DNA from: Lanius collurio
Taxonomy: Eukaryota; Chordata; Aves; Passeriformes; Laniidae
Assembly: GCA_020086605.1 (NCBI GenBank)
Contig: JACBWW010000003.1
Location: forward strand, 51,528,251-51,592,250
Direction: 5' to 3'
DNA length: 64,000 bases
Shown: piece after piece, positions 43,953-56,005 of the stretch
Position numbering within the stretch: position 1 is the stretch's first letter
Layout of the letters: each line of letters starts with the position of its first letter
Made by a program: the position numbers and the translations under genes
Notes under the pieces: model-generated
What the model saw: the letters and a program-made list of their open reading frames with translations, nothing else
The model's database searches: none
Told to the model about the DNA's origin: nothing

Positions 43953-44321
43953 NNNNNNNNNNNNNNNNNNNNNNNNNNNNNNNNNNNNNNNNNNNNNNNN
44001 NNNNNNNNNNNNNNNNNNNNNNNNNNNNNNNNNNNNNNNNNNNNNNNNNNNNNNNNNNNNNNNNNNNNNNNNNNNNNNNNNNNNNNNNNNNNNNNNNNNN
44101 NNNNNNNNNNNNNNNNNNNNNNNNNNNNNNNNNNNNNNNNNNNNNNNNNNNNNNNNNNNNNNNNNNNNNNNNNNNNNNNNNNNNNNNNNNNNNNNNNNNN
44201 NNNNNNNNNNNNNNNNNNNNNNNNNNNNNNNNNNNNNNNNNNNNNNNNNNNNNNNNNNNNNNNNNNNNNNNNNNNNNNNNNNNNNNNNNNNNNNNNNNNN
44301 NNNNNNNNNNNNNNNNNNNNN
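43953..44321. other. Assembly gap (run of N)
   Basis: 369 consecutive N. Open frames reported across it are meaningless. Confidence 0.99.
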
Positions 44322-44373
44322 TGCTCTTTTGGCATCACAGGGGATATGTTTGCTTATGGTTGCCAAAAGAGCA
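44322..44373. repeat. Perfect inverted repeat next to the gap
   Basis: TGCTCTTTTGGCA at 44322-44334 is the exact reverse complement of TGCCAAAAGAGCA at 44361-44373, with a 26-base loop. The left arm starts at the first base after the gap, so the arms could be longer. Confidence 0.9.
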
Positions 44374-47300
44374 TCTTTGGGAATCATATGATCTCTTTGA
44401 ATTCACACGGATAGACTCAGCACAGTAAGAAGACTCTAGTTTTCTTCTGTTTTCCCTAGGTAGAACAAGAAGAAATATGTACCCAAGCATATTTCAGTAT
44501 TACCATGTATGGCTCAAAAAGAGCAAGTAATGACAAAATGCTTGAATAAGTATTAATTCAACCAGAACAATTCACTCAATTCTAAAAGATATCCTTTAAA
44601 GTACTGATTAATACAAAAGCCCAGAAGAGATATAATTTTAAGAAGAAAAGTACTATATATTCACGTAGGCAAAGGATTTTTTTCTCCTTCTTTAGTGTGC
44701 TTATGGCTTCAATTAATTCTAAGAACTCAAATCAAGTACCTAGCATTTGGACTTCTCCTACGTTACAACAGCTATTGAACTTTTTTTTCTAATGTATGAC
44801 AGAGCAATGCTTTTAGTATGCAGTTACAGTAAATTGAGACATGCATTTAGCATTTTAAGCCTCTAGGAAGTCTTTCTTTCTACACGGCAGCTCACCAATT
44901 GAATATTAATATAACGCTTGGCAATTCAGAAACACATGGTGAATTTCCTTTGTCTTTAAATGTCTGTTTAACAACTATTTAATATTCAGGCAAAGAGTTT
45001 GAATTCCATACTTACACTTACCCTTAGAGTATGAATGACTTATTAGCAAGGTGTAGTGGCATTTGATACCTTTACATCCATTTTTAAAGAATGTTGCATG
45101 CTACCGTTATGAGATTTTCCACTATTTATAATCAGGCTTGTACTTCAAAATGGCAAAATAGCCTGTAGCTCATACATTGATATGATGCTCCTATTGAAAC
45201 CTAAAACATATTACAGAAAAATAAAATATTTTCAGTTCTTGCTTTGCACTGGAATTACTGATGGGTTTTCAGTATTTCTACATGCAGTTTTTGCATTTAC
45301 CTTTCCTTGAATCAAAACTCTTATCTCATAAATATGCTAAATTCAGAGGTATGTTCTATCAACAAGTAAACAGGTTTTGATAGCTGAGCCAGACTCACAA
45401 GTCTGTGTTTTTGTATTCTTCTCTTTTCCCGTTCTTACCTTTTCTTCTCTGTTACCCAGTCCTGTCCTTTCTTTTTTTCTCTCCCTTAAAATTAAAAATG
45501 AAATTAAGGGATGATATTTTCACTGGTCCAAATTAGAGCAGTCAGACTGTTATTTGGAACTATGTTTTTTTAAAAATTTCTTCTCCTTTATTTAAATAGT
45601 TACTGACAATAATTTTTATTAGATTTGCCTTTCAACCAAAGGCAATGAATTTACAGCTTTATGAATGTGGTGAATATAGGCCATGATCACCATCCCTGAT
45701 AGAGTATCTTCACATCAGAAGGAATTCTTCTGAAATTGCACATTTTCTTTTTTCTTCTTGTTCTACTTGGCTTTTACTACATTTTTTTTTCTTACATCAT
45801 GTGTCTAGCATGTAACTGAATCACATACTCATCTTTATTAAATGAAATAATAAGTACGAGAAACATCATAGCAGTTCATTTGCTATTGATTAATTCTGTT
45901 GTATAAATCATCCTCTGCTTTACATTTCTGGTCCATAAAGGTGAAAACCAGAAGTAATTAAATACTTTTCATGCTGTGTTTGTATGCCCTGTTGTACAGT
46001 TACTTTCCATTGCCAGATGCCTACAGGCAGTTTGGTGATGATGTTTTGGAGAGGAGTAACTCATCAAATTTGCTGTGCTTGTTCTGTTTCAGAGCAAGCT
46101 TACCACAAACCATCATTAAATGGCTAGTCAATCAGACAATGCTACATTTAGGTATAGATGTGGAAGAATAAAGACAAATAATGGTTCAAGCAATATTTTA
46201 ACACTGAACATGACTCGTTTGTGCCACTTACAGTTAATTTTAAAATACATGCCTGGTGTTGGTAGAATTATTGGATAAGTATGGTAAGAGACTTCATTAC
46301 ATTAATTATTTGTAATACCCACTGTTATTTTTTTTTCATGTAAACTGCATTTCATTGTATGTCTTTTGGCAATATTTGAGTTTGCTCTTTGGTGCAAAAC
46401 AGTGAAGCAAAAAGATTTATTTTTTAAAAGGGAAAATTTCTACTGTTTTATGTATCATGTTTTATATTTATTACAAATATTCAAAATTTGAGGATACTTT
46501 TAAAAGGAAAGAGTTCATATGCACACATTTTCTTTTATGAAGACCTTTGTTTTATACATTTAAAAGATATTAGAAACCTGCCTTTCATTTTAAAACTTTT
46601 TGATGAATGCTCTTCCTTGAGACATGTAGTCCATCTCTTTTCTGAAATGTGTAAATATAATCGTTTTGATAACCTTTTTAATAAGCTTCTCCTGAAGTTT
46701 CTATTTAGATGAATGACATTTAGAGTACTGAATAAGGAAAAGAGAAAAAGAAGTAAGATAGAACTGAATGTAGGCTTACAAATTTACTTACATGTTATGA
46801 CAAAATAAATGCTTTGAATGTAATTTTAGAATTCTAGAAAACTCCCTCATGACAAAAATTGAACTGAAATCTACTTTCATTTTAGCCTATTTCAGTTCAA
46901 AGTGAAATTCCAAGGGGTAAAATGTTCTTTCTCTCAGGTTCCTGTGCAAAGACAAGCCTATTTTTCTCTCAGAAATAACCATGACATAAGAAACCTTAAA
47001 AAATTCAAAAAGTAGCAGACAGGAGCTACCTGGTACCCTGTAAGTGAACTGGGTAATTTATCATTTCTAATACTGACAACCAACTCATTAAAAATAGACA
47101 GTCTAAGGAAACTTTCCACATCTGCTTCTTTAAGTAGCTAAAAAGTATTATAGAGAAACCAATGCTTGTGTGAGAATATACTGGAACAGTCCTGTTCTGA
47201 TGTCCATATTTGGCAAAATTTTTAATACCATTATAGATGCAGAAAACTGCAACATCAAGTATTTGGTTGTGGAAACATAATTTCTAACACAAATATAAGA

Positions 47301-47589
47301 AATCAATCCATTTATTTTATTGAACAGAAATTTATTCAGTAGCCTGAGCAGCTACTATAATGTAGCAAGGAAATACCTTATTGTAAATTGTCAGTTTAAT
47401 CTAGCAAAAGAGTCCAAGGTTAAATTGGAAAAAATGACAAATAGAAATACAGACATTTTTTTAACCCTGGTAATAGTCAACATCTGGAATGCTTAGGGTA
47501 GTGAGAAGAGTGAATGAGTCTGCATGGAATGGGAAACCTGTTCCAATGCACTGTGTATCCATGCCTCCCTTTAGCATATGGGATCAATG
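44374..47589. other. No gene recognised
   Basis: About 3.2 kb of AT-rich sequence. Open frames 45971-46171 (+) and 46488-46712 (+) have no known motif. Confidence 0.6.
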
Positions 47590-47979
47590 GGCTGAGGTCA
47601 AGAGTAAAAGGTTCCACAGGACAAATTGCTGGGTCCTGCACCTGGGTCACAACAACCCCATGAAGAGCTACAGGGTGGGGGAAAGTAGCTGGAAAGCTGC
47701 TCAACAGGGAAGGACCTGAGGGTATTAGTTGATAGCAGCTGAACATGAGCCAGCAGTGCGCCCAGATGGCCAAGAAAGCCAGTGGTGTCCTGGGCCTGTA
47801 TCAGAAACAGTGTGGCCAGCAGAACCAGAGAAGTGGTTGTCCCCCCCTACTTGGCACTCATGAAGCCACACCTTGAGTACTGTGTCCACTTTTGGGACTC
47901 TCACTGCAAAAATGACATTGAGGTGCTGGAGCTTGCCCAGAGAAGGGCAATGAAGGTGGTGAATTGTCTAGAGAGTAAG
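47590..47979 (+). mobile_element. CR1 LINE, first part of an interrupted copy
   Basis: The + strand carries the CR1 ORF2 block with CTGGGTCACAACAACCCCATG, GGAAAGCTGCTCAACAGGGAAGGACCTGAGGG, GCCAAGAAAGCCAGTGGTGTCCTGGG and CTTGAGTACTGTGTCCACTTTTGGG; 47782-47960 translates with PHLEYCVHFWDSH and VLELAQRRAMKVVN. It stops at GAGAGTAAG, and the next CR1 bases resume at 48842 after an inserted element, so this and the pieces at 48842-49088 and 51982-52148 belong to one copy. Confidence 0.88.
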
Positions 47980-48841
47980 GGGGAAGGACAAGACCTAAGC
48001 ATGTTTTGCTTCAAACATTCTGTCTGTTACAACAGTAAAAATGTGATCAGAGGAGAGTATCCCAGGGAAGTGGAGCAGCGCTTTTTTGAACCAGCTTCTT
48101 GCTCTACCTTGAGACTTGTGCTCAGTTGTGTCTCCCAGTCCCACTTGCTGGAGGAGGTCTAAAAGGGCTGATTGTGCATATGTGAGCAAAAAGCACAAAA
48201 TAATCTAGTTTTACACAAGAAGTGTGCACCAGTTTAACTATAAAAGGAAGCAGATTAGGACACCTCACTCTTTTTTTTCCTCTCTTTCTCTTTCACTCCA
48301 CCTCTGGACCATGCTCACAGCAGGATAAATGTGGGATCTAAGGACTGGTGATACTCTTTGTTCTCTCTCTCCCTTTTATGTCCCTATTCCTCTCCTCCAT
48401 TGCTTTGACTGTTCAAAACACAGCTGTGGTTTTTCACCCCCTATTCTGTATTGAACTTTATTCTGGGAGTGGGGAGCTTGTAGAAGTGTGTTGTGGCTTG
48501 TTAGCCAACACCTTTGAGTATTGGTATGTTGTGATTTCTTAGCCTGCACCTTTGGTGGTATGTTGCATCTTGTCATCTTTGAGAAGTGGTGTTGTGGGAG
48601 TTGACAACATATAGAAATGCACTGTATAAAATCTAAGGGCTTGTTTGCCTCCACTTTTTACAAAGTGTGTTGAGAATTTAAGAGCTTGTTAGCCAACACC
48701 TTTGAGGCTACACAGTGGGGTAGTTGCCAGAGTAAAAGCGACTGTACAATAAAAGCACAAGAGTTCCCTGACACATGGTCCAGTGTCTTTGTTCAGCCTG
48801 ATGAGAATTTACAACAAACATCATGCCCATATATCATAACA
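47980..48841 (+). mobile_element. Unclassified LTR-like element inserted in CR1
   Basis: An 862-bp insertion with flanking direct repeats GTAAG at 47975-47979 and 48842-48846; counting one more base to the left on each side gives AGTAAG. A TATA-like ACTATAAAAGG lies near 48237 and AATAAA near 48749, with the end ATAACA about 90 bases later, as in an LTR on the + strand. The expected TG at the start reads GG. Inside, the phrase TTGTTAGCCAACACCTTTGAG occurs twice (about 48498 and 48686), with weaker versions between, so part of it arose by tandem duplication. There is no retroviral protein similarity. The family is unknown to me. Confidence 0.6.
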
Positions 48842-49088
48842 GTAAGTCCGATGAGGAGCATCTAAGGGAGTTGAGTTTGTTTAGTCTGGAGAAAAGGAAG
48901 CTCAGGGGTCACCTTATTGGTCTCTGTAGTTCCTTGACAGGAGGCTGTAACAAAGTGGGATTTGGTCTCTTCTACCAAATAGCAAGAGATAAGACAAGAG
49001 GAAGCAGCCTCAAGTTATGCCAGAGGATGTTTAAACTGGATATTAGGAAGAATTTCTTCATGAAAAGTGTTTTCAAGCATCGAAACAG
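48842..49088 (+). mobile_element. CR1 LINE, middle part of the interrupted copy
   Basis: The + strand continues CR1 ORF2: GATGAGGAGCATCTAAGGGAG, then LRELSLFSLEKRKLRGHLIG on translation, GFGLFYQIARDKTRGSSLKL and LDIRKNFFMKSVFKHRN. It breaks in the codons of KHRNS at 49088, where the provirus is inserted, and resumes at 51982. Confidence 0.9.
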
Positions 49089-49826
49089 TGTTGTAATGAG
49101 GGAAATCCTTAAAACATGTATAAGACATCAATGGACTTGGAAGGAAAGATGAAGCCATATTTTTGTAGATGTTCAGGGATGATTTTATTCCTCCAGCTGT
49201 ATGGCTGGAGTTTCCAGGCAGCTCCAGTCACGGGACCCTCCTGTTGCAGTGGACCCCCCTGCGCCCCCGCCCCAGCTGGGTCCCTGCCATGTGACTGAGT
49301 CGGGTTTGTCCAATGTTCCAGCAGCCCGGGCTCTGATCTGGTTGGTTGTTTATCCCAGCTCCACCCTGGTATCCCCTTTACCCCTCTCTGTGATAAAACC
49401 AGCAGGACACAAAGCCCCGCCCTCTTACCTCGCCAGCTCTGCCCAGGTCAGGTGCTCTGTCCCCCCCAGGACAGAGGGAATAAATGACTTAACATCATAA
49501 GAGGTTTGAGCTGTATTTCTCTTCTCAACTTCTGCTTCTGGTGAGTAGCTCTCACTAACATTGGCTTAAGTGGAGCTGCACAGTTGAGGGATATTTAGGC
49601 TGTTTGTGAATGGTTTAAGATATTCCAAGACATAAAGAGGCAAGCTCGCCACAAATTAAGCAGTGGACAAGCTAATCCACCACCAGGCTCTCCTTCTTCC
49701 TGGGCCCCGGGCACCAACCAATCAGGAACAGGTATGGGGCACACGTGACATGGGAGCAGGGACAGGGACAGACCCGTACCCTGCAGGGTCCCTCCCCCCA
49801 GGATTTCAGGGTAAGGCACCTCCACA
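49089..49826 (-). mobile_element. 3' LTR of the provirus, split by a nested insertion
   Basis: Both ends align with the 5' LTR: 49089-49241 matches 51691-51840, and 49693-49826 matches the rest up to the shared end GCACCTCCACA. The polyadenylation signal (AATAAA on the minus strand) is at 49184-49189. Extra sequence from 49242 to about 49692 is absent from the 5' LTR. Confidence 0.87.
49242..49692 (+). mobile_element. Insertion of about 450 bp within the 3' LTR, LTR-like
   Basis: Absent from the sister LTR. On the + strand it starts TGTTGCAGTGG, is C-rich, has a TATA-like GTGATAAAACC near 49390 and AATAAA at 49479-49484, then a TCTCACTAACA phrase near 49550, as in an LTR with a short U5. A further 130 bases follow before the host LTR resumes. 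CTCC occurs at both borders (49238-49241, 49690-49693), but the right end is not CA, so the exact limits and class are uncertain. Confidence 0.55.
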
Positions 49827-50046
49827 ATTCACACTTTCTTATTAAATAAAGAACATTGGAAACAGTTGGATAAAGGACAAAACAATTCCAAAGGAAAGGA
49901 AGCCACTATCTTGAGTCCCCAAATGTCCAAACAGATTCTCTTTGGAGCATCAGAAGAGAGACAAGACTTGAGCAGGTTTCAGATGGAAATTGAGTCAGGA
50001 GGGTTTTGTTTCCTTTCTGTACCTGTTGGAATCTTAGAAAATAGTT

Positions 50047-50067
50047 AATTTCTTCCCTCCCTCCTTT
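50047..50067 (-). promoter_or_regulatory. Polypurine tract
   Basis: On the minus strand, directly after the stop codon of the cold-shock frame, is AAAAGGAGGGAGGGAAGAAA. This is the composition of a retroviral plus-strand primer, but it lies about 220 bases before the 3' LTR instead of touching it, so it may not be the functional one. Confidence 0.45.
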
Positions 50068-50238
50068 TCATCCCCCCATTGGCATTGCAAAAGAATTCAT
50101 GGCAAATGAAAAAGGCTGGTTTTGTGAGGGGAACCAGAAAGGGAAATTTGGGCTGGACATATATGGGGGATAAAGGGACATGGGATAAATGTGGAAGGTG
50201 GGATTGGAGAAAGGATAGGGATTATGGGGATATTGTCC

Positions 50239-50499
50239 AGCATATCTACTGCCTTTGACAGGGACACCCCCAGGGCCTGTAACACATGAGGCCTGTGGGC
50301 CCTTCCTTCCTTGCACAATTTTAAATTCTATTCTCTCTCCTTCTTCTAAGCTTGGAACATCACTTTTGGGGTTATTTTTCACAATAGCAGATTTATGGAC
50401 AAAAATACTTTCTCCAGTATTGCTTTTCAATAAGAAACCATAATTTTTCTTTACATTATACCATTTTACAGTTCCAGAAACCCCAGCTGCGATAACCTT
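50239..50499 (-). other. Cold-shock domain of Y-box type within the captured gene
   Basis: An uninterrupted domain of about 87 residues that aligns along its whole length with Y-box protein cold-shock domains. The RNP1-like block reads GTVKWYNVKKNYGF and the RNP2-like block reads IFVHK; the ending VTGPGGVPVKGSRYA is a hallmark of Y-box proteins as opposed to LIN28. The four nucleic-acid-contacting residues known in YBX1 are all kept: Trp (50461-50463), Phe (50434-50436), Phe (50401-50403) and His (50395-50397). Other positions differ a great deal from YBX1-3. After the domain comes a tail of about 56 residues rich in Pro, Phe, Tyr, Ser and Met, unlike the alternating basic/acidic islands of host Y-box proteins. 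Y-box proteins bind RNA and single-stranded DNA and package mRNA; a viral role is unknown. Confidence 0.88.
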
Positions 50500-51156
50500 T
50501 TCATTTTTCCGAGTTCCTTTGTTCTTGCTTTCACTTTCAGCTTTGCTTGCTCTCGCATTGGAGCTGCCGCAGCCGGGACCACTGGGGCTGGGGCCTCCAG
50601 CATGTTCTTGTCGTGGGGTCTGGACTCCTCAGGATCACGTGTGGGGCCACGCGGGTCTGGTCTGGCCATGCTGCTGCACACCGCCACTGCCGGCTGCTCC
50701 ACCTTCGGCCACCTTTGCACCACCGCTTGGCGCTGTTCTCGCTTCCCCTCTGGAGCTCCCGTGACTGTTCCACGCTTTCCAGGCGTGTGCGCGGCTGTGA
50801 GGCGTTTGTGTGTTCGCGGCTTCGTATCGCTGGCACTGCCGCCGCTGCTGTCGGCTGTGTGGCCGTTGGCTAGCATGGTTCCCTTCTTGCCCCCACACCC
50901 CTCTGGCTCTGCTCGGTGTGGCTCACCACGGTCGCCATAGCGACTGCCACAATCACCGCTGCCTTTCTCGGCGCCGAGCTCGGACCATTGCTCACCACGT
51001 GGTGCGCCCAGTGCATTGCCAGTCGCGCCTCGGCCGCCGCCTCCCTCGCCGCTGCCTCAGGGCCAACACGGCTGGGCCCGCGCTGCCGCGCTGCTCCTGG
51101 CTGCACTCCCACCACCTCCGGTCTCCCTGCCGGCTCTGCTCCCACTGTGCCTGGCC

Positions 51157-51582
51157 TCACCACCGCCTGCAATGCACTCGGCGCCTGCGGCCAGGGCCGC
51201 ACGGTCTCCAGGGTGGCGGAGGAGCCCCTGCAACGCGCGGGCTGCTCGACCACGTGTTCGCTGCTGAAACCGCAGCGGGACACAGCTGATATTGCTTAAC
51301 TGTCTCTGAAATCAGGTAATATTCACAGAAATAATCCTGCATTGGCACGTTTTTTGATTCGGAAATTAACTGTGTCCAAACATTCTTCCAAAAGTCCTTG
51401 GTAAGAATCAAATCCCAAGAAACATAGAAGTTTTTAAACAGCCATGCCAAAAAGTGTCTTAGTTCTTTCTGAGCTTGAATTAAGCTAAAATCTACATATT
51501 GCTGTTCAAGAACCTTTTTAAGTTTAAGGTAAATGTCTCTTTGTGGTTTGGACAGCCATGAGTCCTTCCATGAGTCCTCCAT
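51157..51582 (-). pseudogene. Truncated gag start, matrix-like
   Basis: A frame of 141 codons beginning at ATG 51582 in good context (ACGATGG), about 90 bases after the primer site. The first 95 residues or so are helical and aromatic in pattern, with LRHFLAWLFKNF and KDFWKNVWTQL, like the small helical matrix domain at the start of ERVK/betaretrovirus Gag. Similarity is to the pattern, not a strong sequence match. Near 51290 the base composition shifts to very GC-rich and the frame runs on for about 40 Pro/Arg-rich codons before a TGA. Capsid and nucleocapsid are absent. Confidence 0.65.
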
Positions 51583-51670
51583 CGTTCAGAGATGGGACAA
51601 CAAAACAAAAGTAAGAAGAGATATCGAGAGTTACTCATGAATCACTGAATTATCTTCTTCAGGGATCGTT

Positions 51671-51688
51671 TGCCTGCATTCTCCACCA
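51671..51688 (-). promoter_or_regulatory. Primer binding site for tRNA-Ala
   Basis: On the minus strand TGGTGGAGAATGCAGGCA, two bases after the 5' LTR, is complementary to the 3' end of tRNA-Ala(AGC) (…GCATTCTCCA plus CCA) with one mismatch; the likeness continues for several bases beyond (…CGATCCC). It marks where reverse transcription would start. Confidence 0.82.
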
Positions 51689-51690
51689 TT

Positions 51691-51981
51691 TGTTGTAGTG
51701 AGGAGAATCCTTACAGCATGTATAAGAGAGCGATGGACTTGGAAGGAAAGATGAAGCCATATTTTGTAGATGTTCAGGGATGATTTATTCCTCCAGCCGC
51801 ATGGCTGGAGTTCCCAGGCAGCCCCAGTCATGGGACCCTCTCTCTACCCGGGACCCGGCCACCCCAAACCAACCACTCAGGAACAGGTATGGGGCATACG
51901 TGACATGGGAGCAGGGACAGAGGCAGACTCGTACCCTGCAGGGTCCCTCCCCCCGGGACTTCAGGGGAAGGCACCTCCACA
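51691..51981 (-). mobile_element. 5' LTR of the provirus
   Basis: 291 bp, starting TGTGGAGGTGCC and ending CTACAACA on the minus strand. AATAAA (51784-51789 on +) with a GGAATAAATCATCCC context marks the polyadenylation region. It is intact relative to the interrupted 3' LTR and borders the primer site on one side and the target duplication on the other. Confidence 0.9.
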
Positions 51982-52148
51982 GAACAGGCTGCCCAGGGAG
52001 GTGGAGTAGTCACCATCCCCAGAGGTCTTCAAAAAATGACTGGATATAGCACTTAGCACCATGGTCAATTGACAAGGTGGTGATCAGTCAAAGGTAGGAC
52101 TCAATCTTTGAGGTCTTCTCCAACTTAAACAATTCTGTGACTCTGTAT
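51982..52148 (+). mobile_element. CR1 LINE, 3' end of the interrupted copy
   Basis: Resumes CR1 precisely where 49088 left off: GAACAGGCTGCCCAGGGAGGTGGAGTAGTCACC, then ATAGCACTTAGCACCATGG, GGTGGTGATCAGTCAAAGG and the terminal CAATTCTGTGACTCTGTA. It gives the orientation and completeness of the host CR1 at its 3' side. Confidence 0.92.
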
Positions 52149-53544
52149 TATGCAAAATGAGATTTGACAGAGTTAACTTTTAAGCTAATGAGCTTAATTC
52201 CTTGATTTACAATTATGTCTCATGCTTTTAGATTCCTAGACCATAGCTGGTTCTCAATAAATTGCCTATACTATTGTTATGCTGGAAAACAAAAATGAAG
52301 GCTCAAGGGATACTGCACTCCCTGAATATGAACTTCTATAGGATGTTCTTCGGTAGGGAGGTGTCATTAAGACTTCAGCTACTTTGGGCAGTGGTAGTTT
52401 CAGATCAGATTGCTTTTTATTTATTTTTCCCTTCTTTCTTTTTTACGCATAATGTAGAATTGTATTTCACATATGAACCTTGATACATCTCACTGTACTT
52501 TTTTTTCCACCTGAAATTGCATTTCTGCAATCTCTGTGAGACGACTGAGAAGCCAAAACTAATCAGAATTTATCTCCCCTTATTAAAATCTCTCAGACAG
52601 AATATAATAGTGGCACCACATAACCTTTGAGATCCTACATGTTGGTGGGCAGTAGGCAGAGTGGTTCCATTTCCTAGCATGCTTTTATAAGTTTAGAAGG
52701 ATGTTACTTGAGAGTGTGTCTCCACAGAAGTTAAAATACAAGGTCACAGATACTGGCTTTTAAAAAAATAAAGAAGAGCTACCAAAAGTATTACTGAATA
52801 TTGTATATAATATTAGTGTCTCATCCTTCCTTCTTCAGGTTGTAATTGAGATAAAGTTTACTTTCTGCTTATTAAGCTTAGACACATTTTCTATGCATGC
52901 TGTAAAATTCTTTGACCTCCAGTTTTCACCTGAATCTATCAGAAGAATATAAGCTCCTGGCATCATATGATAACATAAATTAACAAAAGTGTTCATTAAT
53001 AAAGAGTATTAGCCTCTCTAATGGAAAATATTTAGGTATTTAATATTTCCACTTCAGTTTTGATTGGAAATACTATGTGAAAACCAGAAGCTTCTCAGAA
53101 TTCACTATAAGCTACAAAAATATTTAAAGAAACATCTAGTTATTTTTCCAATGCAGTCAGAACTAATCTGTTTGTCAGCAATTCCACTCTAACACATTAT
53201 CTTTCCAGAGACCTAGAACACAATGGTAAAAAGATGCCTGAGAATTTGATGTGTGTCTTTTTAAAGGAAAACACTAATGTGCTCACAGTATGTAAAGAAA
53301 ACTTTTCTTTAATACCTACCTACTCTTTAGGAGTTCACACCATTTTAACGGCTTCAGCTGAAATGGGAAAAGAACTGTGCAGAAGGAATCTCACTTTTGT
53401 AGGAATGTACTTAGAAGGTAGAGTTTGAATGGTACTCACACTTTCTTTACTAGTTACCATGAAATATTATTGCCCTATAGTGCCTATGTACAAACCTAAC
53501 TGATATTCAGTTATTAAACCTTACATAAATTACTGGGGTTTAAA
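52149..53544. other. No gene recognised
   Basis: AT-rich. Open frames 52262-52483 (+) and 53234-53428 (+) show no known motif. Confidence 0.6.
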
Positions 53545-53713
53545 TTATCACAGAGGTCACTGATGCCACTGATGGCTCAGCTGTGCCTGACATGGGTCTA
53601 CCTGAGATGACTGAAACCAGCTGTGCCCATCATAGGACAGCCACTAGCCTCTCCTCACAGGGGCCACCCTTGCAGTCCCCCCTGCCAGCCCCTGGGCAAC
53701 AGCACCCAACACA
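53545..53713 (-). mobile_element. Degraded 5' fragment of a family A LTR
   Basis: On the minus strand it starts TGTGTTGGGTGCTGTTGCCC and follows the beginning of the family A LTR through CTGTGAGGAGAGGCTAG and GACCTCTGTGATAATTTAA. The rest of the LTR is missing. The match is partial. Confidence 0.55.
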
Positions 53714-56005
53714 CCATGCTTAGAACAGAAGAAATCAGGTAAATATATGATATATTACAATATTGCAGAAGGACAAAACTCCTCTTACGAACATGTAGTG
53801 TTAGTACAGTCTTCATCTGTAAAACCTGTGTTATATTTTCATTATTTCAGTAAAAATCAGATGGCAAAAGGGACATGCGCTGAAATATCACTTTATAGCC
53901 TTTAAAGGACTTAATATCTTCTTCTGGACGTTGCCAGGGTCATGATTTATACTGAAGGTCTTCAGTGCTGCATATGACAATTGTGTTGGATTCAAGTAAT
54001 TTGGACAGGACAAAATATCATAAGGGACGTAAAAACCATGAGATAGAGTCAAAGACATAATAAAGTTTCTTCACACAGTGGAGAAAACGTGTGTTAAACA
54101 TATATCATTTTAACCTATCAAACACAGAGCAAAGCCTTCCATGCAGCTCGGCGTTGCAGGACTCAGTAAGTGCTGTGGCTGCAGTTTGCTGGGCACTACA
54201 GCAAGCACATGCTGAAGGTTGTTTCCTGCAGCATCAGCAACAGAAGGAGTTGCTCTGCTCCCCCTTGCAGCTGTGGGCAGGCTGGCAGCAGTGTGGTAAC
54301 AGGGATGTGGTAGTTAACATGAGGAACTGAGCAATTTCAAGTGCAGAAAGTTTCATTTGGAGCACTCATGGATGATTAACTTCAGGTTTCTCCCTCCAAG
54401 AAGAAGACTGCAGAAAATATTCCAAGGCAATACACTCCCATAAAAAAGAGATGGGAAAGACTACTTTCAACATCTACAGCAGCCCTAAGTTTGAAAAAGA
54501 CTACTGTCTAGTCTGGCACCTAAGGAAAATCTGAAATTCACAGCTGAGATGTGGCTAAAAGAATCCATGATTTGGATCATATTCTGCACAATAATAAGAA
54601 TACTCTAATAAGTATTTTATTAAGATACAGTGAGTATTTTATTGAGATACAAATGCTAAAGTTAATAATGGCACAGATTCAAGAAGAACATGGTTTCTTT
54701 TACTGAAAAATGAGCTGATCTGATAAAGACTTGAAAGAAAAACTAAAATCATCTGTAAAACCAGAAAACCTATATGAAAGGGAAAGAGTGAGTAATGTGC
54801 AGCAAAAAATGGACAGGCTGGATGGCCCTTCCTGTCTTTAACATCTCTGCTTTCAGTACTCTTTGGTAGTGTTTTTGCTTCACTTTGCACCATTGCTGTA
54901 AACATAAAATCTGCTCTTCATGCACTGTGTACTACTTATAAAGCATAGATATGCTACCCTCAGTACATAAATATAAGTAAGTCCACAGGTTTTTCCAAAG
55001 AATTAGAATTTTGATCTCTATCCCCTAGCATACACTGAGCTTTATGTTTATATGATGCACAAAAGAATTTAAAGACAGTCTGAACAAGGGACTATCTGCA
55101 TTAAGGCAAGTGTTTGGAAAATTGGAATAGTAACTGGAAATCCTCCAACTGGTTTAATCCATGTCATATTTTTATAGGTTGCTCAATAAGGAGCATATAA
55201 AAAGCTACAAATTTACAGGAAGTTGGTGTTACATCTAATTGGTTACTGGATCAGTTTATTTCAAGAAATGTTTCTTGTGTATTTTTACCTTTTAAAATGA
55301 CTCTTTGTTAATGAAACAGATATAATTCCATCAATCTTGAAATAATTCCCACAGCACATCGTTATGATTAGTTTCACTTTCACACTAGTGCTGCCAATTT
55401 TTAAAAACAGTCTTTTCATTAATAATACTGCCTAGTATGAGCTGCCAAAAACTATTTAATGTGTGATATGAAAAATCTGGCATTAGGTAGGTGCATAGTG
55501 AGAGCCAGTAGTGTAAGAATTTCATATTTCCTCCAATAGATTTGTCTGAAATGAACTCTGTGTGTTCTCACAGTGTGTTCTCTGTTAAAATAAAATTGCT
55601 GTGTTTCATTATTTAATTTGCACATTTTTGAAGTTAGAATGATACAATCAGTATTCCCTTAATCCTATTTTTATGCCTGATATTCACATACAAAAAGTGA
55701 TTTGCTTGATTTCAGTGCCAACATATGAAAATATTTTTTTATTCCTGTTGAGACTTAGGCAGTATACCTTTTCAGATTAAGGAGATTCATATTGTCATTT
55801 TCCTAGCATATATGTGCTGCTCCACACCAGCTTACCTTTTTTTTGCAGCTAGAGACCTTTCCTCTTGACTCTCTTCAGCAGTATGACTTATTTGGTTACT
55901 CTGGCTCTCTCTTCTCTAAAATGAGATGGTAAGCTTTTCATTTCATGGGCCATGTGTTTTTATCTATTCCATAAAGCTTACATGGCATTTATGGGATCAA
56001 TGTAA

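What the first reader, a model, noticed from the sequence alone, without database searches (positions are those of the whole stretch)
49089..51981. Provirus that appears to have captured a host Y-box gene
Seen: paired LTRs, a primer binding site, a gag-like start and then a complete intronless cold-shock domain of Y-box type on the same strand, with no pol or env. Known: acutely transforming retroviruses take up host genes as gag fusions and depend on helper viruses. Inferred: an ancient avian ERVK-like virus did this with a Y-box gene. I know of no described endogenous retrovirus carrying a Y-box gene, but I could not search.
Basis: partly seen in the sequence, partly recalled or inferred. 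Interest (0 to 1): 0.9.

Follow-up and report, generated by a model that had tools for sequence, protein, structure and literature searches.

The report
Bird retrovirus fused to Y-box gene
This is a decayed copy of a small, defective bird retrovirus that had joined part of a host RNA-binding gene (a Y-box gene) to its own coat gene; crows carry relatives with the same fused gene, probably including the inserted element linked to grey plumage in hooded crows.

Summary
On the minus strand, 49089-51981 is a provirus with paired LTRs (21 differences in 264 cleanly aligned sites), an imperfect 6-bp target duplication, a matrix-like gag start, a CpG-rich linker, an intronless Y-box cold-shock domain (CSD) and an aromatic/proline tail. 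No pol or env was seen. Gag start and CSD share a frame; the linker carries 6 in-frame stops. Three Corvus moneduloides proteins (369-440 aa; one cluster has 24 members) carry both parts in one open frame. CSDs of the window and five crow proteins form one clade (97/97), nearest YBX2 by identity: one capture, not a separate retrocopy. New link: a published PCR primer inside the 2.25-kb ERVK insertion upstream of NDP in hooded crows encodes HPWFPS, exact to the crow tail, and a fusion-type element should measure 2264 bp. That plumage-associated insertion is probably a member. Proposed mechanism (inferred): the fusion couples Y-box RNA binding to betaretrovirus-like assembly, as MMTV does by recruiting cellular YB-1; a helper supplies pol. 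No helper was found, the primer tRNA is unassigned, the window's host species is unknown, and the CSD could be a passenger.

The parts
51691..51981 (-). 5' LTR, 291 bp, TG...CA, with AATAAA at LTR position 193
49089..49826 (-). 3' LTR, interrupted by a nested piece
49243..49688 (.). Nested insertion of about 446 nt in the 3' LTR; boundaries read by eye; probably a solo LTR of another family (inference)
49083..49088 (.). Left copy of target-site duplication (AAACAG)
51982..51987 (.). Right copy of target-site duplication (GAACAG)
51583..51690 (-). Leader, 108 nt; a primer binding site should lie at its start (about 51671-51688) but no tRNA was assigned
51283..51582 (-). Gag-like, matrix-like start, 100 codons from ATG; the frame stays open to 51160
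50629..51282 (-). Linker between the two conserved parts, CpG-rich, broken here by 6 in-frame stops (all in 50629-51159)
50068..50628 (-). Open frame of 186 codons and stop with the Y-box CSD
50275..50478 (-). CSD core (Pfam PF00313, residues 51-118 of the frame)
50071..50238 (-). Aromatic/proline tail, shared with crow copies, not with host YBX proteins
49827..50067 (-). 3' untranslated region up to the 3' LTR

Best explanation
SHOWN: 49089-51981 is an inserted provirus (paired LTRs, imperfect 6-bp duplication) whose recognisable coding parts are a matrix-like start and a Y-box CSD with a distinctive tail, in one frame, with a linker that is now broken. Crow relatives carry the same parts as one open frame. 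STRONGLY INFERRED: a betaretrovirus-like (ERVK-type) bird virus captured a spliced Y-box transcript, probably YBX2, once, by fusion to its gag, with loss of capsid, nucleocapsid, pol and env. The small element (about 2.3-2.4 kb) then spread as a lineage with at least two subfamilies, and the hooded-crow NDP insertion is probably a recent member. INFERRED, not shown: the fusion protein is an assembly adaptor. Its matrix-like part would join it to a helper's Gag, its CSD would bind the element's RNA, and a helper ERVK would supply capsid, reverse transcriptase and integrase. MMTV, a betaretrovirus, recruits cellular YB-1 in trans for assembly; this lineage would carry its own Y-box part.
For: Anatomy. 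Fusion frames in crow. One clade of CSDs. Nearest host YBX2 by identity (P0124: 57 of 78 human YBX2; 143.9 vs 138.7 bits). Matrix fold lead. CpG-rich linker, as expected from a captured first exon. The W, F, F and H positions of the CSD that I recall as RNA contacts of YB-1 are kept in 7 of 7 ERV-type rows printed. The matrix-like part is kept best in 3 of 3 pairs of crow fusions, and the CSD is kept better than the linker in 2 of 3. NDP primer, controls and lengths. MMTV Gag and YB-1: passages.
Against: The matrix-like start has no sequence match to any Gag; the models are poor (pLDDT 48.5 and 56.2) and the fold E-values not significant (3.5, 3.2). No helper was found. In one of three pairs (P0122/P0124) the CSD changes as fast as the linker (55/88 vs 80/126). 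No DNA of the crow copies was available, so no dN/dS and no direct view of their LTRs. The tail is compositionally biased: reversed crow proteins also hit it by tblastn, best E 8.6e-7. The donor is unresolved in the tree. No function was tested.
Confidence: 0.7

Rival explanations
1. Passenger capture: the Y-box part was picked up by accident and does nothing for the element, which spreads only through its LTRs and leader with a helper.
For: Acutely transforming viruses carry host genes of no use to their own replication machinery (general knowledge). In P0122/P0124 the CSD (55/88) is no better kept than the linker (80/126). The window's copy is broken.
Against: Open fusion frames persist in two crow subfamilies; the CSD is better kept than the linker in 2 of 3 pairs (74/88 vs 112/175 and 54/88 vs 66/125); the four recalled RNA-contact positions are kept in 7 of 7 rows.
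Confidence: 0.25
2. Domesticated gene: the crow fusion proteins serve the host now, and the window holds a dead relative of that gene's source.
For: Several open frames in the crow protein set, one cluster with 24 members.
Against: Multi-copy, several subfamilies, and a probable young insertion that still segregates among crows look like a mobile element. Not mutually exclusive with the main reading for single copies.
Confidence: 0.07
3. Separate processed retrocopy of a Y-box gene that landed inside an unrelated provirus.
For: The CSD is intronless.
Against: Crow proteins join the same gag-like start, CSD and tail in one frame; in the window the two parts are also in one frame. The repeat finder at 20 nt and over showed no direct repeat bounding the CSD, which would not show a short one.
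Confidence: 0.01
4. The start is not Gag but another captured or new sequence, so this is an LTR element with a chimeric host gene and no viral protein.
For: No sequence match to any Gag; it lacks the glycine after the start methionine that many matrix proteins have (recalled).
Confidence: 0.1

Closest known systems
corCorLTRK1b, ERVK subfamily of crows, with the 2.25-kb insertion 20 kb upstream of NDP (PMC7341801)
   Same: LTR 296 bp against 291; whole length 2.25 kb against 2264 expected for a P0122-type element; an internal primer encodes the tail of the crow fusion proteins exactly.
   Different: The insertion is young (under 534,000 years by that paper); the window copy has LTRs 8% apart. 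The paper's main text does not mention Y-box, YBX, cold shock or gag. Its sequence was not seen.
Acutely transforming (transducing) retroviruses, such as those with v-src (PMC13297096, passages) or gag-onc fusions (recalled)
   Same: A host gene within a provirus, in frame with gag, with loss of viral genes.
   Different: A germ-line, multi-copy lineage, an RNA-binding gene rather than a growth gene; no transforming role known or tested.
Crocodilian ERVs with captured KIT-ligand and nectin3 (PMC4299795, passages)
   Same: Endogenous lineages that kept a captured spliced host gene.
   Different: There the KIT-ligand lineage lost no ERV domain and nectin3 replaced env; here the host domain is fused behind a gag start and the rest is gone.
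MMTV, which recruits cellular YB-1 (PMC4486188 and PMC6797609, passages; both cite Bann 2014)
   Same: Betaretroviral Gag and a Y-box protein brought together with viral RNA.
   Different: In MMTV two proteins meet in trans; here they are one polypeptide. That it does the same job is inference.
Vertebrate YBX2
   Same: Y-box CSD, VKGSRYA end (window, P0124), highest identity for P0124.
   Different: 58-73% identical over the 78-residue core against the best-matching host rows; tail unrelated to the YBX C-terminus.

Membership tests
LTR retroelement / provirus | Paired LTRs with TG...CA ends | tested here: met
LTR retroelement / provirus | Target-site duplication | tested here: met
   6 bp, 5 of 6 identical
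LTR retroelement / provirus | Primer binding site for a tRNA | tested here: inconclusive
   TGG 2 bases behind the LTR; no tRNA assigned, no tRNA set to compare with
ERVK / betaretrovirus-like | 6-bp target duplication (recalled as typical) | tested here: met
   one mismatch
ERVK / betaretrovirus-like | Betaretroviral matrix fold at the Gag start | tested here: inconclusive
   MMTV matrix first hit but E 3.5, model pLDDT 56
ERVK / betaretrovirus-like | Place in a reverse transcriptase tree | not testable with these tools
   no pol in the element and no helper found
Transducing retrovirus with gag fusion | Host-derived coding sequence in one frame with gag | tested here: met
   open in 3 crow proteins; same frame but broken linker in the window
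Transducing retrovirus with gag fusion | Dependence on a helper virus | not testable with these tools
   inferred from the absence of pol and env in the frames scanned
Transducing retrovirus with gag fusion | Transforming activity | not tested
   none
Crow family corCorLTRK1b | LTR and element length | tested here: met
   291 vs 296 bp; 2264 expected vs 2.25 kb
Crow family corCorLTRK1b | LTR sequence similarity | not testable with these tools
   consensus is in a supplement that could not be opened; only two internal primers were available
Y-box (YBX) proteins | Y-box CSD | tested here: met
Y-box (YBX) proteins | Alternating basic/acidic C-terminal domain (recalled) | tested here: not met
   replaced by an aromatic/proline tail; so it is a Y-box-derived fusion, not a YBX protein

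The most novel reading that the evidence does not exclude
A betaretrovirus-like songbird lineage turned a host assembly cofactor into part of its own Gag: a matrix-Y-box fusion that packages the element's RNA in place of nucleocapsid and of the recruited cellular YB-1. This minimal element stayed mobile from before the split between the window copy and the crow copies until recent times, and one of its insertions is the candidate plumage mutation at NDP that separates hooded from carrion crows.
Probability: 0.4. Interest if true: 0.92.

Novelty: new variant of a known kind. Interest (0 to 1): 0.82.

Why it matters
Host-gene capture by retroviruses is best known from sporadic tumour viruses; here a capture became a multi-copy germ-line element. 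The captured domain belongs to a protein family that a betaretrovirus is known to recruit for assembly, so the fusion is a natural experiment on how Y-box proteins help retroviruses. If the NDP link holds, the candidate mutation for a well-studied case of incipient speciation carries a captured host gene, which makes the origin, expression and mode of action of that insertion directly testable.

Tried and rejected
Separate retrocopy: rejected (crow fusion frames). Ordinary gag: rejected for the CSD. DNA copies in public collections: four scans of viral contigs and one of bacterial and archaeal genome contigs gave no confirmed relative; bird genomes are not in those collections. The whole-genome tool did not answer in 3 of 3 tries. 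Rfam: no match at 44000-56000. Two structure predictions of the matrix-like piece had low confidence. I believe the provirus sits in a CR1 repeat, but that is recalled: the joined flanks found no copy spanning the junction elsewhere in the window (three short partial matches). The second internal NDP primer was first taken as support (note); by residues it scores 4 of 6, no better than two of the four flank primers (4, 4, 3, 3), and its best place in the window element, the leader, ties with another place at 13 of 20, so I count it only as not contradicting. The first NDP primer's DNA match in the window (14 of 20 at the homologous place) is best in the element but is equalled once elsewhere in the window; the weight lies on the exact protein match.

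Literature: 0 papers hold endogenous retrovirus + Y-box + bird + captured; 0 hold Y-box + endogenous retrovirus + songbird; 3 hold cold shock domain + endogenous retrovirus + birds, unrelated by title and abstract start. Listings seen only in part: 25 of 131, 20 of 67, 20 of 93, 20 of 39; no Y-box ERV in the titles and abstract starts shown. One paper holds 'corCorLTRK1b', PMC7341801, which is also the one found. So 'not in print' is claimed for these searches of an open-access library only.

Full report
WHAT IS THERE. The element reads on the minus strand. Its 5' LTR is 51691-51981 (291 bp), its 3' LTR 49089-49826; both begin TG and end CA. In the two cleanly alignable blocks the LTRs differ at 21 of 264 sites. 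The middle of the LTR was left out of that count because the 3' copy holds a nested piece of about 446 nt there (about 49243-49688, boundaries by eye) and the neighbouring alignment is unsure; over the forced alignment of 291 columns there are 36 differences. With the rate used in PMC7341801 (0.0158 per site per My) 8% is about 2.5 My; with slower bird rates that I recall (2-3 per 10^9 per year) it is 13-20 My. The age is open. The flanks show AAACAG and GAACAG, 5 of 6 identical. Without the nested piece the element is 2447 bp.

GENE CONTENT. After a 108-nt leader a frame opens at ATG 51582 and stays open to 51160. It has no Pfam or PDB sequence relative. Then comes a GC-rich stretch (50500-51282: GC 0.67, CpG observed/expected 0.79, against 0.375 and 0.15 for the whole window; the five highest-scoring 783-nt stretches of the window overlap it). 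Then comes the frame 50068-50628, with a Y-box CSD (Pfam E 6.7e-20; PDB YB-1 and YBX2 about 1e-29) and an aromatic/proline tail. The gag-like ATG and the CSD frame are 954 nt apart, hence in one frame, with 6 in-frame stops between the open pieces. Of the four element frames given to Pfam only this one passed a family's cut-off.

RELATIVES. The CSD frame against 5.8 billion proteins gave 140 hits, 120 listed. The first three, P0001-P0003, are Corvus moneduloides proteins matching over 98, 97 and 73% of the query, tail included; the other 117 listed cover 40-58%, that is, the CSD (species). The tail is compositionally biased, and reversed crow proteins also hit it by tblastn (best E 8.6e-7), so scores alone overstate its kinship; but words such as NPTF, YPMS and WFPSQN stand in the same order. 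The gag-like piece alone gave one hit, P0121, from an unnamed 531-bp contig, 68% identical. The gag-like start with X padding gave 3 hits among 23 candidates, each from Corvus moneduloides: P0122 (440 aa, 24 member sequences), P0123 (376 aa) and P0124 (369 aa), 73-78% identical, and 3 of 3 carry the CSD. What the 24 members are (loci or species) the tool does not say. No CSD-less Gag with this start was found, in a length range that should have admitted Gags of about 202-644 aa.

ONE CAPTURE, PROBABLY OF YBX2. In a tree of 23 CSDs the six ERV-type rows used (window, P0001, P0003, P0122, P0123, P0124; P0002 was not put in) form one clade, 97/97; P0124 branches first, and the window joins the other crow rows, 96/86. 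So at least two subfamilies are older than the split between the window copy and most crow copies. The window's branch is long (0.72), which the tool flags. The host placement is open in the tree. By identity P0124 is nearest YBX2 (57 of 78 human, 56 of 78 goose and others), and YBX2 leads YB-1 among PDB chains, 143.9 against 138.7 bits; the other crow rows do not separate YBX2 from YBX1/3. The YBX1 and YBX2 human rows came from PDB output, the human YBX3 row is recalled, and no avian YBX1 or YBX3 was included. An intronless CSD behind a CpG-rich stretch fits capture of a spliced transcript with its first exon; that is inference.

THE HOODED-CROW LINK. PMC7341801 (abstract, passages and section 24 seen) describes a 2.25-kb ERVK insertion, subfamily corCorLTRK1b, with 296-bp LTRs, 20 kb upstream of NDP, associated with lower NDP expression and with hooded plumage. 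Its primer P_L_R_2 encodes, in one of six frames, HPWFPS, which stands in the tails of P0001, P0002, P0003 and P0122; P0123 ends before that point and P0124 differs there. The homologous place in the window reads PFWFPS and is the primer's best DNA match inside the element, 14 of 20, a score equalled once elsewhere in the window. Shuffled primers hit any 6-residue word of three crow proteins in 45 of 300,000 draws; 20-mers of the window outside the element hit words of six crow proteins in 18 of 60,659. By the window's spacing the primer product would leave 47 bp of flank out of the 659 published, which is possible; and two 296-bp LTRs, the leader, P0122's frame and the 3' region add up to 2264 bp against 2.25 kb (leader and 3' lengths taken from the window). 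The other internal primer is no better than the flank primers by residues (4 of 6; flank primers 3, 4, 4, 3). I put the link at about 0.9. The paper's main text has no mention of Y-box, YBX, cold shock or gag; its supplements could not be opened.

HOW IT MAY WORK. Shown: fusion frames, a multi-copy family, and the W, F, F and H positions (RNA contacts of YB-1 as I recall; the paper was not held) kept in 7 of 7 rows. Inferred: LTR-driven transcript, fusion protein, capsid and pol from a helper. MMTV Gag meets YB-1 and viral RNA in cytoplasmic foci, and YB-1 knockdown cuts particle output (passages of PMC4486188, and PMC6797609, both citing Bann 2014). A matrix-Y-box fusion would do by joining what MMTV does by recruitment. 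Constraint by domain: matrix-like part 88/99, 77/85 and 76/87; linker 112/175, 80/126 and 66/125; CSD 74/88, 55/88 and 54/88 for the pairs P0122/P0123, P0122/P0124 and P0123/P0124. The matrix-like part is kept best in 3 of 3, the CSD better than the linker in 2 of 3 and level with it in 1 of 3. That leaves room for the passenger view.

VERDICT. A real and unusual provirus; the capture is well supported, the mechanism is a reasoned guess. The kind is known (host-gene capture by a retrovirus), the variant new as far as the searches named in Tried and rejected show: a Y-box part joined to a gag start in a minimal, multi-copy germ-line element, with a probable tie to a well-studied crow mutation.

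Noticed in passing
49243-49688: Nested piece of about 446 nt inside the 3' LTR, beginning TG, with AATAAA on the + strand; probably a solo LTR of another family in opposite orientation.
   Followed up: partly
P0003 residues 265-307 against 51661-51789: The crow protein model P0003 runs on into sequence matching the window's LTR end and leader (tblastn E 3.7e-4), as if copies stood in tandem or the gene model spanned two copies.
   Followed up: partly
P0124 (Corvus moneduloides, 369 aa): A second crow subfamily with a CSD much closer to YBX2 and a different aromatic tail.
   Followed up: partly
50500-51282: The linker lies in the CpG-richest stretch of the whole window, perhaps a captured CpG island or first exon.
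   Followed up: partly
51661-51690: The start of the leader seems kept between window and P0003 (TNGG...TIP in translation), yet I could match it to no tRNA.
   Followed up: no
43953-44321: A run of N (assembly gap or masked stretch).
   Followed up: no
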